This document shows, in pieces, positions 19,136-26,619 of a stretch of 64,000 nt of DNA (positions are counted from its first letter, which is position 1; the number at the start of each line of letters is the position of its first letter). The DNA lies in contig MPCU01000002.1 of NCBI GenBank assembly GCA_001874305.1, positions 558,001 through 622,000 of the forward strand, written 5' to 3'. Origin of the DNA: Bacteriovorax sp. MedPE-SWde. Its GTDB lineage: Bacteria; Bdellovibrionota; Bacteriovoracia; Bacteriovoracales; Bacteriovoracaceae. The position numbers were made by a program, and so were the translations under genes. The notes under the pieces are model-generated. The model did not search any database and was not told where the DNA came from. It worked only from the letters and a program-made list of their open reading frames with translations.

Positions 19136-21529
19136 TTACGAGATTACTTTTTGTTTTTTTTCTTTTATTTTTTCTTCAAACGAAAGTTTAAGATCATCAT
19201 TTTCTATTTCAACAATAACCTTTCCACCTTTTACTAATTTTCCGAAAAGAATTTCTCCAGAAAGCTCCTTCTTCAGCTTCTGATCGATCATTCGGCCAAT
19301 TGGTCGAGCTCCCATTTTTTCATCAAATCCATTCTCTGCGATCCATTCTTTTGCTTTTTCACTAACAACTAACTCAATATTCTTCTCAACGAGCTTAATT
19401 TCAAGTTGAGAAAGAAACTTTTCTACAATTTTGACAACATATTCTGTGCTCAGTTTATCAAAATGCACTATTCCATCTAATCTATTCCTAAATTCTGGTG
19501 AGAAAAAGTTCTTTATAGTGCGATCTCTCTTCGCATTATTAGTTTTTGTCTTAGACGCAAGCCCGATACTACCGGCCTCTACGTCCTTAGCGCCTGCATT
19601 TGTTGTCATAATAATGACAACATTTCTAAAATCAGTCACTCTTCCCTGAGAATCGGTTAATTTACCATGATCCATCACTTGAAGAAGGATATTAAAGAGA
19701 TCAATATGCGCTTTTTCAATTTCATCCAAGAGAAGAACACAGTGTGGATTCTTCTTAATTGCATCAGTTAAAACTCCACCCTGCTCATGTCCAACATAAC
19801 CGGGAGGCGCTCCTATAAGCTTAGACACTGAATGCTTCTCCATATATTCAGACATATCAATTCTTTCGAGATGACAGCCCATATGTAGTGATAGCTGTTT
19901 GGCAAGTTCAGTTTTTCCTACTCCTGTTGGTCCAGCAAATAAAAAAGATGAAATAGGCTTACCATCATTTCCAAGCCCCGATTTTGCCATAATTATAGAC
20001 TGGGCCACAGTTTCAACAGCACTATCTTGCCCAAAAATTAGCATCTTTAAGTCTTTTCCAAGATCTTTTAGTTTATCTTTCTCAGTTGTCTCTACTGTGA
20101 TTCTTGGAATATTTGCCATGCTAGCAACAACAAGCTCAATATCTCTCTTACTAATTGTATTTTTCTTCTTATTATCAGGCTTAATTTGATTTAATGCTCC
20201 TGCTTCATCTATCGCATCAATAGATTTATCAGGGTTTTTCCTGTCAGTTAGGTAGCGATCAGTTAGTTTTACAGCTGTTCTCAATGCACTATCTGTTATT
20301 TTCAGCTTATGAAAATCTTCGAATCTTGTTCTAAGTCCCTTCAAGATAGCTAGTGTATCTTCAAGAGATGGCTCATCAACGTCCACCTTTTGAAATCTTC
20401 TGTTAAACGCAGGGTCCTTTTCAATGAACTTTCTGTGTTCTGAATACGTAGTACTACCAATACATCTAATAGTTCCATTACTAAGCGCTGGCTTAAGCAA
20501 GTTACTTGCATCCATACTACCGCCGGTTGTTGCACCAGCTCCCATAACAGTATGCATTTCATCAATAAATAGAATCGCCTTATCACCCTTCTTTGACATT
20601 TTATCAAGATCTTTAATGACTCCCTTTATTCTCTGCTCAAAGTCTCCACGAAACTTTGCTCCTGCAACAAGAGACGCCATATCAAGAGTAAACACTTCAG
20701 TATCTTCTAAAACCGTTGGAACGTCTCCATTAACAATTCTTAGAGCAAGACCTTCCACGATAGCTGTTTTTCCAACACCGGCCTCCCCAACAAGTAATGG
20801 GTTATTCTTTCTTCTTCGACAAAGTATTTGGATAATTCTCTTAACTTCTTCATTTCTACCCACAAGTGGATCAATTCGATTCTCCGAAGCTAATTCATTT
20901 AAGTTCGTTGCATACTTATCAAGAAATGTTCCTGACTTTTTAACAACTTCTATTTCTTCTTCATCTAGAGCTTCTTGAGTATCACCTTCACCAAGCTTTG
21001 GAGTATCAAGTTCTAATGTTGAAGGTCCATCAACGTCATGCGATATTGCTTTAACAATATCAAATCTCTCGATTCCCTGTTTTTGGATTGTATATAATGC
21101 GAAGCTCTCACTCTCCTGAAACATGGCAACAAGAAGATTAATTCCCTTAATTTGTCTTTTTCCAGCTGATTGAACATGAATAGCGGCACGTTGAATTACT
21201 CTTTGTAGCGCCAAAGAGATCTCTGGTTGATATTCAATTCCATTATCTTTTGCGAGTTGCCTTAGTTCATCATTTACAAACTGTTTCTTACTAAGTTCAG
21301 CAATCTGCTCTTCATTGAGAATACTGAAGTTTGCCTTATCATCAATAAAAGCTTCGAGCTCTTCTCTAATCATTATGAGATCTGCACCACAAAGCTCTAA
21401 AACCTCTGTAACTTGTTCATCGCCAAGCATCGCAAGAAGTACACTTTCTAAGGTCAAATATTCGTGATGAAGGCCATTGGCCCTTCTTATAGCATCATTA
21501 ATAATGACTTCTAATTTTTTTGACATCAT
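19136..21529 (-). CDS. clpA: ATP-dependent Clp protease ATPase subunit ClpA
   Basis: AAA+ unfoldase that feeds substrates to ClpP in the cytoplasm. The 797-residue protein has the Clp N-domain, then a first AAA module with Walker A 'GEAGVGKTAIVEG' and 'AILFIDEMHTVMGAG', and a second with 'GPTGVGKTELAKQ' and 'VLLLDEIEKAH'. It has the 'GAPPGYVGHEQGG' pore loop and 'GSIGLASK', the IGL/F loop that docks ClpP. It lacks the long ClpB middle domain. It lies 6 bases after clpS, the usual pair for N-end-rule degradation. clpP is not in this window. Confidence 0.96.
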   Translation of the reverse strand: MMSKKLEVIINDAIRRANGLHHEYLTLESVLLAMLGDEQVTEVLELCGADLIMIREELEAFIDDKANFSILNEEQIAELSKKQFVNDELRQLAKDNGIEYQPEISLALQRVIQRAAIHVQSAGKRQIKGINLLVAMFQESESFALYTIQKQGIERFDIVKAISHDVDGPSTLELDTPKLGEGDTQEALDEEEIEVVKKSGTFLDKYATNLNELASENRIDPLVGRNEEVKRIIQILCRRRKNNPLLVGEAGVGKTAIVEGLALRIVNGDVPTVLEDTEVFTLDMASLVAGAKFRGDFEQRIKGVIKDLDKMSKKGDKAILFIDEMHTVMGAGATTGGSMDASNLLKPALSNGTIRCIGSTTYSEHRKFIEKDPAFNRRFQKVDVDEPSLEDTLAILKGLRTRFEDFHKLKITDSALRTAVKLTDRYLTDRKNPDKSIDAIDEAGALNQIKPDNKKKNTISKRDIELVVASMANIPRITVETTEKDKLKDLGKDLKMLIFGQDSAVETVAQSIIMAKSGLGNDGKPISSFLFAGPTGVGKTELAKQLSLHMGCHLERIDMSEYMEKHSVSKLIGAPPGYVGHEQGGVLTDAIKKNPHCVLLLDEIEKAHIDLFNILLQVMDHGKLTDSQGRVTDFRNVVIIMTTNAGAKDVEAGSIGLASKTKTNNAKRDRTIKNFFSPEFRNRLDGIVHFDKLSTEYVVKIVEKFLSQLEIKLVEKNIELVVSEKAKEWIAENGFDEKMGARPIGRMIDQKLKKELSGEILFGKLVKGGKVIVEIENDDLKLSFEEKIKEKKQKVIS

Positions 21530-21535
21530 AACTTC

Positions 21536-21922
21536 TTACTCCGGTTCAATTGTACACAGAAGAGGATGGCCATTTTGCTTGGCCTCAAGAGAAACTCTCT
21601 TCATCTTCGATTCGGCAACTTCGTGAGTGAAAACACCGCACTGACCTTTTCCTTCATTGTGTACAAGCAGCATAATCTCTTGCGCTTCAGCACCTGTTTT
21701 TGAAAAAATCATTTTTAAAACATAGATTACAAACTCCATTGTCGTGTAATCATCATTATGTAAAAGCACCCTATATCTTGGGGGCCTTTTAAACTTCTTT
21801 CTTGTTATTGTGGCGAGGTCTCCCTCTCCTTCTTCTTTATCATTTCCCATTCTCACCAATAAGTTGGCGTCTCTATCTTGAATGTCAAGATTGGGCCTGT
21901 TCATAAACTCTTCAACTATCAT
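21536..21922 (-). CDS. clpS: ClpA adaptor ClpS
   Basis: ClpS delivers N-end-rule substrates to ClpA. The 128-residue protein has an unstructured N-terminal ~45 residues and then the conserved core: 'RVLLHNDDYTTMEFVIYVL' (binding-pocket NDD/TM positions), 'LVHNEGKGQCGVFTHEVAESK' in two conserved pieces. Its place just before clpA supports the call. It is slightly longer than E. coli ClpS because of the N-terminal tail. Confidence 0.95.
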   Translation of the reverse strand: MIVEEFMNRPNLDIQDRDANLLVRMGNDKEEGEGDLATITRKKFKRPPRYRVLLHNDDYTTMEFVIYVLKMIFSKTGAEAQEIMLLVHNEGKGQCGVFTHEVAESKMKRVSLEAKQNGHPLLCTIEPE

Positions 21923-23785: not shown

Positions 23786-24604
23786 ATGAATGATATACCT
23801 ACATCTTTAACAGGTGATTTTAAAAATAATATTAAGACTAAATTAAAAGCTAAGAAAGCATATAATATTGATGAAATGGAAAATGAGTTTAAATCTAAAA
23901 TCAATTTTTCAGATATGCTAGATAAGAATTATAAAGATGTAGAAGAATCACCTGTATCTGACCTCATTAAATCAACAACTCAGTCAGTTGTATCGAAACA
24001 AGAGGACTCTTCAGAGAATATATCAGAAAGACTAGACCTTCTCGAAGACAAGCTACAAATTAATTCAGTCAATGAGAAAATGGAGCGCGTAGAAGGACTT
24101 CTTCAATCTCTCATCATTAATCAACAGAACCTTCAACACTCACTTCAAAGTGAAATTAAAGATAGATTAGTTGAGTTTAAAACAGATCAACAAAAGAGAA
24201 CTCCGGCAATAAACGAAGATGTAAGAACAGTTAAAGAAGTAGGCTCAAGTAGAAACTCTCTTATAGCTCTTGCAACATCGGCATTAATTGTTATCGCATC
24301 TCTTATCTTTGCATTTAACAGTAGTAAAGAGTCTAGTGTTAACTCACCTGTTCAGGTAAAGATAGAAGCTCCTAAGAAAGTTCTAAAAGTAGTAGCTACA
24401 CCAAAATTTGTTACGACTAAGTTTGTTAACTTAAGAGTTTCAGCATCTACTAAAGCTAAAATTGAGTTTATAGTTCCGCCAAACTCTATAGTTGAAAGAC
24501 TAGAGCACAAAGCAGGATGGAATAAAATAAAGTTTAAAAACCATATCAAGTCGACTTCATTAACAGGTTGGGTATATGGAGAAAATCTTAAAGAATTAAA
24601 TTAA
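23786..24604 (+). CDS. Membrane protein with coiled coil and C-terminal SH3 domain
   Basis: 272 residues. About 150 cytoplasmic residues, including a coiled-coil segment (about 75-125), then a membrane helix (about 159-177, 'IALATSALIVIASLIFAF'), then a bacterial SH3-type domain at the C-terminus ('TKFVNLRVSASTKAKIEFIVPPNS', 'GWNKIKF', 'GWVYGENL'). SH3_3 domains in the periplasm usually bind peptidoglycan or peptides. The orientation (cytoplasm to periplasm) is inferred. It overlaps tail to tail by four bases with the deamidase-like gene. No neighbours suggest a specific role. Confidence 0.7.
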   Translation: MNDIPTSLTGDFKNNIKTKLKAKKAYNIDEMENEFKSKINFSDMLDKNYKDVEESPVSDLIKSTTQSVVSKQEDSSENISERLDLLEDKLQINSVNEKMERVEGLLQSLIINQQNLQHSLQSEIKDRLVEFKTDQQKRTPAINEDVRTVKEVGSSRNSLIALATSALIVIASLIFAFNSSKESSVNSPVQVKIEAPKKVLKVVATPKFVTTKFVNLRVSASTKAKIEFIVPPNSIVERLEHKAGWNKIKFKNHIKSTSLTGWVYGENLKELN

Positions 24605-25209
24605 TAGTTTAAAATAAAACCAAATGGATTCTCGTTTTGGCGATTATATTCAACATAGTCGCCTCCTCCAAGAGAATCCATATGTCTAAACAATCGACTT
24701 CCTCCAAAATGAATACGATCGACCTTAGCGCTTTGTAGAGCATAGGGAGTAGTAAGAAACATCTCATCATATTCGAAAATTTCCCCATCTCTTAATGAGA
24801 TAGTGATATTTTCAATACCCCTTAGGTTTAAAGAAATAACTATCCCTCGAGATTGAAGATCTTCTTTTATTGAGTCTGCTAAATCAGTGGATCCACCAAT
24901 AAGAGAGACACTAATATTCTTTGAAAATTGTTTTAATAGCCTAGGTAACTCACGATCTAAATCAGTTTGAGCGTCAATATGTGCCAATAGTCCAAGCTTT
25001 CGCTCTTCATCAAAAATAACCAGTCCCACACAGGTTAATAACCCATAGGTCTGAATATAATCATACTGATTAGAATCAGCTAGAATATACTCTCTTTGAG
25101 CAACTTCAGGGATCCCTTCAATATCTTCGATCCTCTCTAGTCCACTAGCAAAGCAAATAAGAGGAAAAAGTAAAACTGTCAGTAATTTGGCCATACTAGA
25201 ACCTATCAT
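24601..25209 (-). CDS. Secreted CheD/NTAN1-fold putative cysteine deamidase
   Basis: 202 residues with a signal peptide (MAKLLTVLLFPLICFASG if the second Met, at 25194, is the start). The body resembles N-terminal asparagine amidohydrolase (NTAN1) and CheD: 'YIQTYGLLTCVGLVIFDE', 'LGLLAHIDAQTDLDRELP', 'ISVSLIGGS', 'ISLNLRGIENITISLRDGEI'. Thr54, Cys60 and His77 have the Thr-x5-Cys-x16-His spacing known for the CheD catalytic triad. If right, it would deamidate Asn or Gln side chains outside the cytoplasm. CheD and NTAN1 are normally cytoplasmic, so the signal peptide is unusual. The assignment rests on pattern and spacing only. Confidence 0.6.
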   Translation of the reverse strand: MIGSSMAKLLTVLLFPLICFASGLERIEDIEGIPEVAQREYILADSNQYDYIQTYGLLTCVGLVIFDEERKLGLLAHIDAQTDLDRELPRLLKQFSKNISVSLIGGSTDLADSIKEDLQSRGIVISLNLRGIENITISLRDGEIFEYDEMFLTTPYALQSAKVDRIHFGGSRLFRHMDSLGGGDYVEYNRQNENPFGFILNY

Positions 25210-25311: not shown

Positions 25312-26619
25312 ATGAAACTTATTTTAATAGAACCTGATGAAAATTTACGCTCCCTATTTGAACTTAATATAACTAACGAGTTATCATACGAAGTTATACC
25401 AAGAGATGATGCAAAAGAAGCCATCAGCTTCATGCAGATACTTCCGGACATCAGAATAATTGTAACTAAAGATAAAATTGGTGCAGAGAATAGTGCAAAG
25501 ATCCTAGAAGATCACCTTTCCCAATCAGGTCGATCAAGCGTCCAGTTATTTGTTATCGGTCCAGAGTTTGAAGCTACCCAAGATTTTACACATGCGCTTC
25601 CTGAAAATACTACACCAGAAAAGCTCATTGAATACCTCGTTAAAAAGAGAAAGGTAAAGGGCCAAAGTATATCAACTCAAGGCTACATGCCGGTTCCACT
25701 TAAAAGCTTAAAGTATCTTGGAGTATATCCAAGTGACATATATTTGAATATGAAAAGGGATGGAGAATTAAAATTTATCAAAACCTTTAATGCTAAGGAC
25801 AGAATTGAGAAACAAGATGTCGAAAAGTACTCGCTAAAGGGAATTGAAAAAGTATTTGTTCTCGAGTCTGATTTTAAAGACTATGTCGAGCGCGCAAATA
25901 TTGTTTTTAGCAGTATGATTATCAATCCAGACCTAAGTAAGAAATCTAAAGACGAACTTAGAAAGGTTGTTCTAAGACAAATCAAGAATATTGGAGTCAA
26001 TGAACAGTCACTCGAGCTAGCATCAACATTCATCAACGATGTTCAAAAAGAGGCCAGCTCAAATGCAGCATTAGGCTCGATTGCGGAAATATTTAACTCT
26101 TCAATGGGCTACCCTTTTCAAAGAAGCTATATGTGCTCACTCTTTTCTAAGTTAATTGCTGATCAATACTCTTGGAAAGATCAGTCACATATTCAAGCTC
26201 TAAGTATTGCAGCTGTTTTTGCTGACTCTGAACTATCCTCTAAAGAAGAGCAAGCTATAGCTACAGAAGATGACCTTAGGGATGCTCAAATCTCAAGTGA
26301 TAGGCGAAAAATTGTAAAGACCCACGCAAAACTAGCGTCAGAGAAAGTCTCTCAAGTAAAAGGAACATCTCCAATGCTTGAACAACTTGTAAGGTTTCAA
26401 CACGGTAATACTACGGGTGAAAGCTTTAATTTTAATCTAGGAGACAAGATGTCTCCTCTATACGCTATTTTTATTGTAAGTGATAACTTGGCAAGACTCA
26501 TCCTCTCATCAACGAGAAAGAAAATTGAGCTAAACAAGTATATAACTGAAATTAATAAGGTTTATCCTAATAAACATATTGAGACTGCGCTTGAAAACTT
26601 AAAGAAACTCTTTGTTTAG
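25312..26619 (+). CDS. Pseudo-receiver plus degenerate HD-GYP protein
   Basis: 435 residues. The N-terminus has receiver-domain layout ('LILIEPDENLRSLFELNI', with acidic Glu7/Asp9), but the phospho-acceptor Asp position reads Thr52 in 'PDIRIIVTKDKIG'. A middle domain (~115-215) is not recognised. The C-terminal ~180 residues follow the HD-GYP helix order: 'ALSIAAVFADSEL' (HD replaced by AD), 'KTHAKLASEKV', 'FQHGNTTGES' (HHExxxGxGYP replaced by QHG), 'YAIFIVSDNLARL'. Metal ligands are mostly gone, so phosphodiesterase activity is unlikely; it may bind partners or nucleotides. It stands alone upstream of fxsA. Confidence 0.6.
   Translation: MKLILIEPDENLRSLFELNITNELSYEVIPRDDAKEAISFMQILPDIRIIVTKDKIGAENSAKILEDHLSQSGRSSVQLFVIGPEFEATQDFTHALPENTTPEKLIEYLVKKRKVKGQSISTQGYMPVPLKSLKYLGVYPSDIYLNMKRDGELKFIKTFNAKDRIEKQDVEKYSLKGIEKVFVLESDFKDYVERANIVFSSMIINPDLSKKSKDELRKVVLRQIKNIGVNEQSLELASTFINDVQKEASSNAALGSIAEIFNSSMGYPFQRSYMCSLFSKLIADQYSWKDQSHIQALSIAAVFADSELSSKEEQAIATEDDLRDAQISSDRRKIVKTHAKLASEKVSQVKGTSPMLEQLVRFQHGNTTGESFNFNLGDKMSPLYAIFIVSDNLARLILSSTRKKIELNKYITEINKVYPNKHIETALENLKKLFV

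What the first reader, a model, noticed from the sequence alone, without database searches (positions are those of the whole stretch)
24601..25209. Secreted protein keeps the CheD deamidase triad spacing
Seen: a signal peptide, then Thr54, Cys60 and His77 in TYGLLTC...GLLAHID. Known: CheD catalytic residues (T. maritima Thr21, Cys27, His44) have the same 6- and 17-residue offsets; NTAN1 shares the fold and has similar 'thCh..D' and 'v.LvGG' features. Inference: an extracytoplasmic Asn/Gln deamidase, perhaps acting on prey proteins or in the periplasm, analogous to toxin deamidases of the CNF1/CheD fold. A CheD/NTAN1-type enzyme with a signal peptide is unexpected.
Basis: partly seen in the sequence, partly recalled or inferred. 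Interest (0 to 1): 0.75.

Follow-up and report, generated by a model that had tools for sequence, protein, structure and literature searches.

The report
Secreted CheD/NTAN1-like deamidase-type enzyme
A gene in a marine predatory-type bacterium encodes a probably exported enzyme built like the protein deamidases CheD and NTAN1, which normally work inside cells, and its target is unknown.

Summary
The minus-strand gene 24601-25209 encodes 202 aa with an export-type N-terminus and Thr54, Cys60, His77 at CheD/NTAN1 spacing. The spacing alone is weak evidence (0.24 chance hits per window). Homology is not: 6 of 6 first-set members hit Pfam NTAN1, a 13-row profile finds T. maritima CheD first and human NTAN1 second among 177,635 PDB sequences, and AlphaFold models of two members match NTAN1 (Z 13.5, 14.2) and CheD (10.9, 13.6). 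The family is a clade apart from local CheDs (100/100) and sparse: 11 of 129 genomes of its GTDB family. The triad is invariant in 14 of 14 rows; 13 of 14 have no other Cys outside the signal sequence. It is not CheD (motifs, Pfam match absent) and not a proven NTAN1 (residues binding N-terminal Asn are mostly replaced or unlocated). Best reading: an extracytoplasmic Cys-His-Thr amidohydrolase, probably an Asn/Gln deamidase, substrate unknown. Action on prey is possible but not shown; the toxin analogy is only a distant fold. New variant of a known kind.

The parts
24601..25209 (-). Gene of the secreted CheD/NTAN1-like protein, 202 aa
   Evidence: ORF; Pfam PF14736 N_Asn_amidohyd 21.2 bits, E 1.8e-4, under the cut-off of 24; fold match to NTAN1 Z 13.5 and CheD Z 10.9
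25144..25209 (-). Export-type signal sequence, about residues 1-22 (alternative start Met6 at 25192-25194)
   Evidence: Hydropathy and -3/-1 rule; start region read; cleavage site not predicted by a dedicated tool
25090..25110 (-). PEVxQRE motif, residues 34-40
   Evidence: P34, E35, Q38, R39, E40 invariant in 13 of 13 rows of A5; aligns to V-x-Q-R-E of NTAN1
25048..25050 (-). Thr54, predicted triad member that orients the His
   Evidence: Invariant in 14 of 14; equivalent of CheD Thr21 and NTAN1 Ser69
25030..25032 (-). Cys60, predicted nucleophile; the only Cys of the mature protein
   Evidence: Invariant in 14 of 14; only Cys outside the signal sequence in 13 of 14
24979..24981 (-). His77, predicted catalytic base
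   Evidence: Invariant in 14 of 14; equivalent of CheD His44 and NTAN1 His92
24973..24975 (-). Asp79, H-x-D as in NTAN1, not as in CheD
   Evidence: Invariant in 13 of 13; NTAN1 H-C-D in the alignment; the 13 local CheDs have H-x-x-L-P
24892..24897 (-). Gly105-Gly106 after a strand, shared with CheD and NTAN1
   Evidence: Invariant in 14 of 14; aligned
24658..24726 (-). Family-specific C-terminal block K162..R165..R172..RH175-176..S179..GGGD184
   Evidence: K162, R165, R172, R175, H176, S179 invariant in 13 of 13; from residue 171 on pLDDT under 50, so its position is unknown

Best explanation
The gene encodes an exported cysteine amidohydrolase of the CheD/NTAN1 branch of the CNF1/YfiH-like fold. 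Shown: homology, predicted fold, invariance of the Thr/Cys/His triad, an export-type N-terminus in the family. Inferred: after export through the inner membrane the free thiol of Cys60, deprotonated by His77 (oriented by Thr54), attacks a carboxamide, releases ammonia and forms a thioester that water opens to the acid. The likeliest substrate is an Asn or Gln side chain of a protein or peptide in the periplasm (the cell's own, or that of the prey it grows in). Substrate choice would be made by the family's own basic C-terminal block, since the NTAN1 recognition region is not found. The substrate itself is not identified.
For: Pfam NTAN1 hit in the window protein, in 6 of 6 of the first set and in 12 of 14 of the larger set at E <= 10, best 8.4e-7; two relatives pass the Pfam cut-off (25.5 and 32.4 bits). 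PDB profile search: CheD 2.7e-5 and NTAN1 0.067 are ranks 1 and 2 (13 rows); 5.2e-7 and 0.026 with a 14th, divergent row. Profile-profile match to 13 CheDs of the same GTDB family: probability 94.5, triad in register. Two AlphaFold models: NTAN1 Z 13.5 and 14.2, CheD 10.9 and 13.6. Triad invariant in 14 of 14. Sole Cys in 13 of 14, which suits an enzyme thiol outside the cytoplasm. Signal sequences. Two carriers, G094 and G095, also have an ordinary CheD, so this is not simply their CheD.
Against: The window protein is under the Pfam cut-off for PF14736; NTAN1 in the PDB profile search is not significant on its own (0.067). With the first 6 rows only, CheD scored 0.68, NTAN1 was not listed and unrelated chains ranked first. 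Models are modest (mean pLDDT 72.1 and 70.2, 5-row alignments). Active-site geometry was not measured. The fold also serves other chemistry (YfiH/YlmD rows), so the substrate class is open. No gene context outside the genus points to a substrate.
Confidence: 0.6

Rival explanations
1. A true N-terminal asparagine amidase (NTAN1 function) working outside the cytoplasm on protein N-termini, for instance those made by secreted proteases.
For: Best fold match is NTAN1; Pfam NTAN1 hits; Thr59 next to Cys60 equals NTAN1 Thr74; H-x-D and QRE shared. In 2 of the 16 regions the neighbour is an HExGH protease of one family (one of the two scores as M48), and in a third an unrelated HExxH protein.
Against: NTAN1 Asp71 and Thr73 correspond to invariant Gly56 and variable position 58 (by the ungapped -6 spacing; HMMER itself puts a gap there). 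Ser254, Thr255 and Glu260, needed for full activity, lie in a C-terminal region of NTAN1 that the window model does not cover (aligned to NTAN1 31-211 or 31-217; two rows end at 264). The protease family has 4-10 matches in each of 12 of the 15 carrier genomes searched, so the neighbours may be chance.
Confidence: 0.12
2. A peptidoglycan-directed amidohydrolase of the same fold (as YfiH/PgeF acts on UDP-MurNAc-L-Ser; recalled), trimming or deamidating stem peptides of own or prey wall.
For: YfiH-type chains are the next fold matches (best Z 7.5 and 9.2), one in complex with UDP-MurNAc-L-serine. A periplasmic location fits. In L026 the gene lies 66 bases behind an L,D-transpeptidase gene on the same strand.
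Against: Z falls well below NTAN1/CheD; the transpeptidase neighbour was noted in one place only (L026, the same place as L063) among the regions; no YfiH-specific residue was tested.
Confidence: 0.12
3. A catalytically dead or binding-only descendant, or a glutamate methylesterase rather than a deamidase.
For: A remote relative (L046, 260 aa) shows T-E-S-R where the Cys loop should be (by eye), so the superfamily may lose the nucleophile. CheD is also named a methylesterase (NCBIfam name).
Against: Triad invariant in 14 of 14 family rows.
Confidence: 0.1
4. A cytoplasmic CheD-like receptor deamidase whose N-terminus only looks like a signal sequence.
For: CheD is the first PDB profile hit.
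Against: Hydrophobic N-termini in 12 of 13 rows with hardly any sequence conservation there; CheD Pfam not matched by the window protein; distinct clade; real CheDs coexist in two carriers.
Confidence: 0.04

Closest known systems
NTAN1, eukaryotic protein N-terminal asparagine amidohydrolase (Pfam PF14736; PDB 6A0E)
   Same: Best fold match; triad spacing 6/17; QRE, T-C, H-x-D and GG motifs
   Different: Eukaryotic and 310 aa; equivalents of Asp71, Thr73 and the C-terminal recognition region were not found; our protein is probably exported and has its own basic C-terminal block
CheD, chemoreceptor glutamine deamidase (Pfam PF03975; PDB 2F9Z)
   Same: First PDB sequence-profile hit; T-x-G-x-x-(S/T)-C loop and His in register; fold
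   Different: No LGSC, no H-x-x-LP; separate clade, 100/100; export-type N-terminus; the CheD Pfam model does not match the window protein
YfiH/PgeF/YlmD (DUF152)
   Same: Same fold class (best Z 7.5 and 9.2)
   Different: Much weaker match; larger proteins; different known substrates
CNF1/CNFy/BLF1 toxin deamidases
   Same: Distant fold (best Z for CNF1-type 4.0 and 5.6)
   Different: No sequence match; L-S-G-C motif absent

Membership tests
CNF1/YfiH-like cysteine hydrolase fold, CheD/NTAN1 branch | Shared fold | tested here: met
   Two models; NTAN1 and CheD are the top rows, Z 13.5/10.9 and 14.2/13.6
CNF1/YfiH-like cysteine hydrolase fold, CheD/NTAN1 branch | Cys-His-(Ser/Thr) triad in register | tested here: met
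   Alignments; 14 of 14 invariant
CNF1/YfiH-like cysteine hydrolase fold, CheD/NTAN1 branch | Cys and His in contact in space | not testable with these tools
   No coordinates of the models were available (one search lists the files held)
NTAN1 (PF14736) | Pfam gathering score | tested here: not met
   Window 21.2 bits against 24; 2 relatives pass, 25.5 and 32.4 bits
NTAN1 (PF14736) | Residues that bind the N-terminal Asn: Asp71, Thr73, Thr74 | tested here: not met
   Only Thr74 has an equivalent (Thr59, 13 of 13); Gly56 and variable 58 at the other two places, by the ungapped spacing from the Cys
NTAN1 (PF14736) | C-terminal recognition region with Ser254, Thr255, Glu260 | tested here: inconclusive
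   Model of the window protein aligned to 31-211 or 31-217 only; own C-terminus has pLDDT under 50
NTAN1 (PF14736) | Deamidation of N-terminal Asn | not testable with these tools
   Needs an assay
CheD (PF03975) | Pfam match | tested here: not met
   No match for the window protein; genome best hit elsewhere, 13.5 bits against 25; 1 of 14 family rows matches CheD, 2.1e-5
CheD (PF03975) | LGSC and H-x-x-LP motifs | tested here: not met
   Invariant in 13 of 13 local CheDs, absent in all 14 family rows
CheD (PF03975) | Cytoplasmic partner of CheC and receptors | tested here: inconclusive
   Export-type N-terminus speaks against it; no localisation data
CNF1-type toxin | L-S-G-C motif at the nucleophile | tested here: not met
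   L-L-T-C here; motif from PMC8960835 (passage)

The most novel reading that the evidence does not exclude
Some predatory bacteria export a protein deamidase of the CheD/NTAN1 lineage into the prey periplasm, where it changes Asn/Gln residues of prey envelope proteins or fresh N-termini; that would be an extracytoplasmic use of a lineage known as cytoplasmic.
Probability: 0.2. Interest if true: 0.75.

Novelty: new variant of a known kind. Interest (0 to 1): 0.5.

Why it matters
CheD and NTAN1 are intracellular enzymes (established knowledge; NTAN1 in the N-degron pathway). A third, probably exported clade with an intact triad and a sole catalytic Cys would extend enzymatic protein deamidation of this lineage to the cell envelope, and gives a small tractable enzyme for substrate searches in predator-prey systems. 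In the searches made here (open-licence PubMed Central only) no paper describing an exported CheD/NTAN1 protein appeared in the listings; most subscription journals are not covered.

Tried and rejected
N-degron link: clpS (21536-21922) and clpA (19136-21529) lie about 3 kb away, and NTAN1 feeds the N-degron pathway. Rejected as a functional link: of the 16 regions only the window and the DB6_IX locus L025 share these genes; and the product is probably exported.

Conserved operon: none. All-against-all comparison of neighbours in 16 regions gave pairs of close relatives, plus a few loose pairs: a metalloprotease (L055, L061), an RHS-repeat protein (L052, L054) and an Hsp70-type pair (L051, L055). 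The metalloprotease family has 4-10 matches in each of 12 of 15 carrier genomes, so I do not count it as evidence.

Mobile element: no relative in viral contigs or phages; one weak plasmid hit, a CheD of Pontibacillus; none for row L060 in plasmids.

Rows dropped before counts: of the 19 genomes at E <= 1e-3, four (G335, G098, G042, G033) have E of 1e-4 to 8e-4; G098 and G033 are ordinary CheDs by sequence, the other two remote. They are not in A4/A5. G213 (L061) is a real but longer relative (32.3 bits to PF14736) and was left out of A4/A5 as too divergent. L059, L063 and L064 carry the same proteins as L027, L026 and L028 and were not counted twice in A4/A5. L060 was left out of A5 because it could bias the CheD hit; both results are given.

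The first genome-contig scan with the single protein found nothing; the second, with A1, found 4 loci. Those patterns are narrow, so the spread outside the phylum is not settled.

Full report
What was found. The minus-strand ORF 24601-25209 encodes 202 aa. The pattern T-x5-C-x16-H is found in 1 of 62 non-overlapping ORFs of the window against 0.24 expected by shuffling, and in 0.11% of shuffles of this protein; it is a lead, not proof.

Homology. The protein alone gives PF14736 (N-terminal Asn amidohydrolase) at E 1.8e-4, 21.2 bits, below the cut-off of 24, and short CheD matches in NCBIfam, best 6.3e-3. No PDB sequence matches it alone. Six members together: PF14736 in 6 of 6, best 4e-6, but their profile does not find NTAN1 in the PDB and gives CheD only 0.68 behind unrelated chains. 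With 13 members CheD (2f9z) is first at 2.7e-5 and NTAN1 (6a0e) second at 0.067 of 177,635 sequences; adding the more divergent L060 gives 5.2e-7 and 0.026. In Pfam 12 of 14 members hit PF14736 at E <= 10 (best 8.4e-7) and 1 of 14 hits CheD. A profile of 13 CheDs from the same GTDB family aligns with the 13-member profile at probability 94.5 with the triad in register.

Fold. AlphaFold2 from five rows gave mean pLDDT 72.1 (window protein) and 70.2 (relative L026); the C-terminal 30 or so residues are unreliable in both. PDB comparison: NTAN1 Z 13.5 (145 residues, 3.1 A) and 14.2 (137, 2.8 A); CheD 10.9 (120, 3.3 A) and 13.6 (125, 3.0 A); YfiH/YlmD at best 7.5 and 9.2; CNF1-type at best 4.0 and 5.6. 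In the window model T54 ends a strand, C60 precedes the next and H77 lies in the one after. Among viral predicted structures the best rows are giant-virus proteins, one named CheD.

Active site and recognition. T54, C60 and H77 are invariant in 14 of 14 rows; Cys-His spacing is 17 in 8 and 16 in 6. C60 is the only Cys outside the signal sequence in 13 of 14; L028 has two more. Of the residues that hold the N-terminal Asn in NTAN1 (Asp71, Thr73, Thr74, Ser254, Thr255, Glu260; PMC7022378, results part 1 of 2 and discussion read), only Thr74 has a clear equivalent (T59). The loop T-x-G-x-x-T-C looks like CheD's, while Q-R-E and H-x-D look like NTAN1's. The family has its own invariant block K162, R165, R172, R175, H176, S179, which neither relative explains.

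Location. Hydrophobic N-termini with plausible cleavage sites in 12 of 13 rows; the remaining row was trimmed by me. No dedicated predictor was run. Export is therefore likely, not proven; whether the protein stays in the periplasm or goes further is unknown.

Distribution. 11 of 129 genomes of the GTDB family, 4 of 48 genera; in the phylum 19 of 368 at E <= 1e-3, 15 of them below 1e-13. Named carriers: Bacteriovorax sp. DB6_IX, Bacteriovorax sp. BSW11_IV, a Halobacteriovorax marinus isolate and a groundwater Deltaproteobacteria MAG. The MAG suggests that the family is not confined to marine predators. One copy in the window genome, which has no CheD over cut-off. G094 and G095 have both this protein and an ordinary CheD. 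On a tree of 27 rows the family and the CheDs are two sides of one branch, 100/100; L060 has a long branch and its place is unsure.

Context. The gene order is shared with DB6_IX only; among the 11 genes shared between the window stretch and L025 this gene is the least conserved (51.6% identity against 55.1-87.8%). Fast divergence would suit an enzyme facing changing targets, but also plain weak constraint. No neighbour recurs widely.

Reading. An exported Cys-His-Thr amidohydrolase of the CheD/NTAN1 branch, most likely an Asn/Gln deamidase of envelope proteins or peptides. Steps shown: family, predicted fold, triad conservation. Steps inferred: catalysis, substrate class, place of action. Rivals and what would refute them are listed in their sections. 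Literature: search listings and passages of PMC12724312 and PMC8960835 gave no description of such a protein; a term search of PMC11656739 found none of the terms.

Noticed in passing
window 19136-21922 (-): clpA and clpS lie about 3 kb from the gene; in DB6_IX (L025) the same order. An NTAN1-like gene near the N-degron adaptor is striking but not conserved beyond the genus.
   Followed up: yes
L055 6847-7548, L061 4548-5372: An HExGH secreted metalloprotease of one family sits next to the gene, convergent, in two different GTDB families; the protease family has several matches per genome.
   Followed up: partly
L026 4132-5922: L,D-transpeptidase (YkuD) 66 bases upstream on the same strand.
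   Followed up: partly
L045 1420-2931: CheD domain fused to a response-regulator and CheB-like methylesterase in one 503-aa protein (by eye); several other CheD hits of about 500 aa may be the same fusion.
   Followed up: no
L060 5176-6312: 379-aa exported protein with a CheD/NTAN1-like domain behind a long N-terminal part that holds an EF-hand-like DLDHDRRIS stretch (by eye).
   Followed up: no
L046 1012-1794: Remote relative with H-x-D kept but no Cys at the nucleophile position (by eye): possibly a dead enzyme.
   Followed up: no
window 25312-26619 (+): 435-aa protein, divergent from the gene, starting like a receiver domain and with no Pfam family over cut-off.
   Followed up: no
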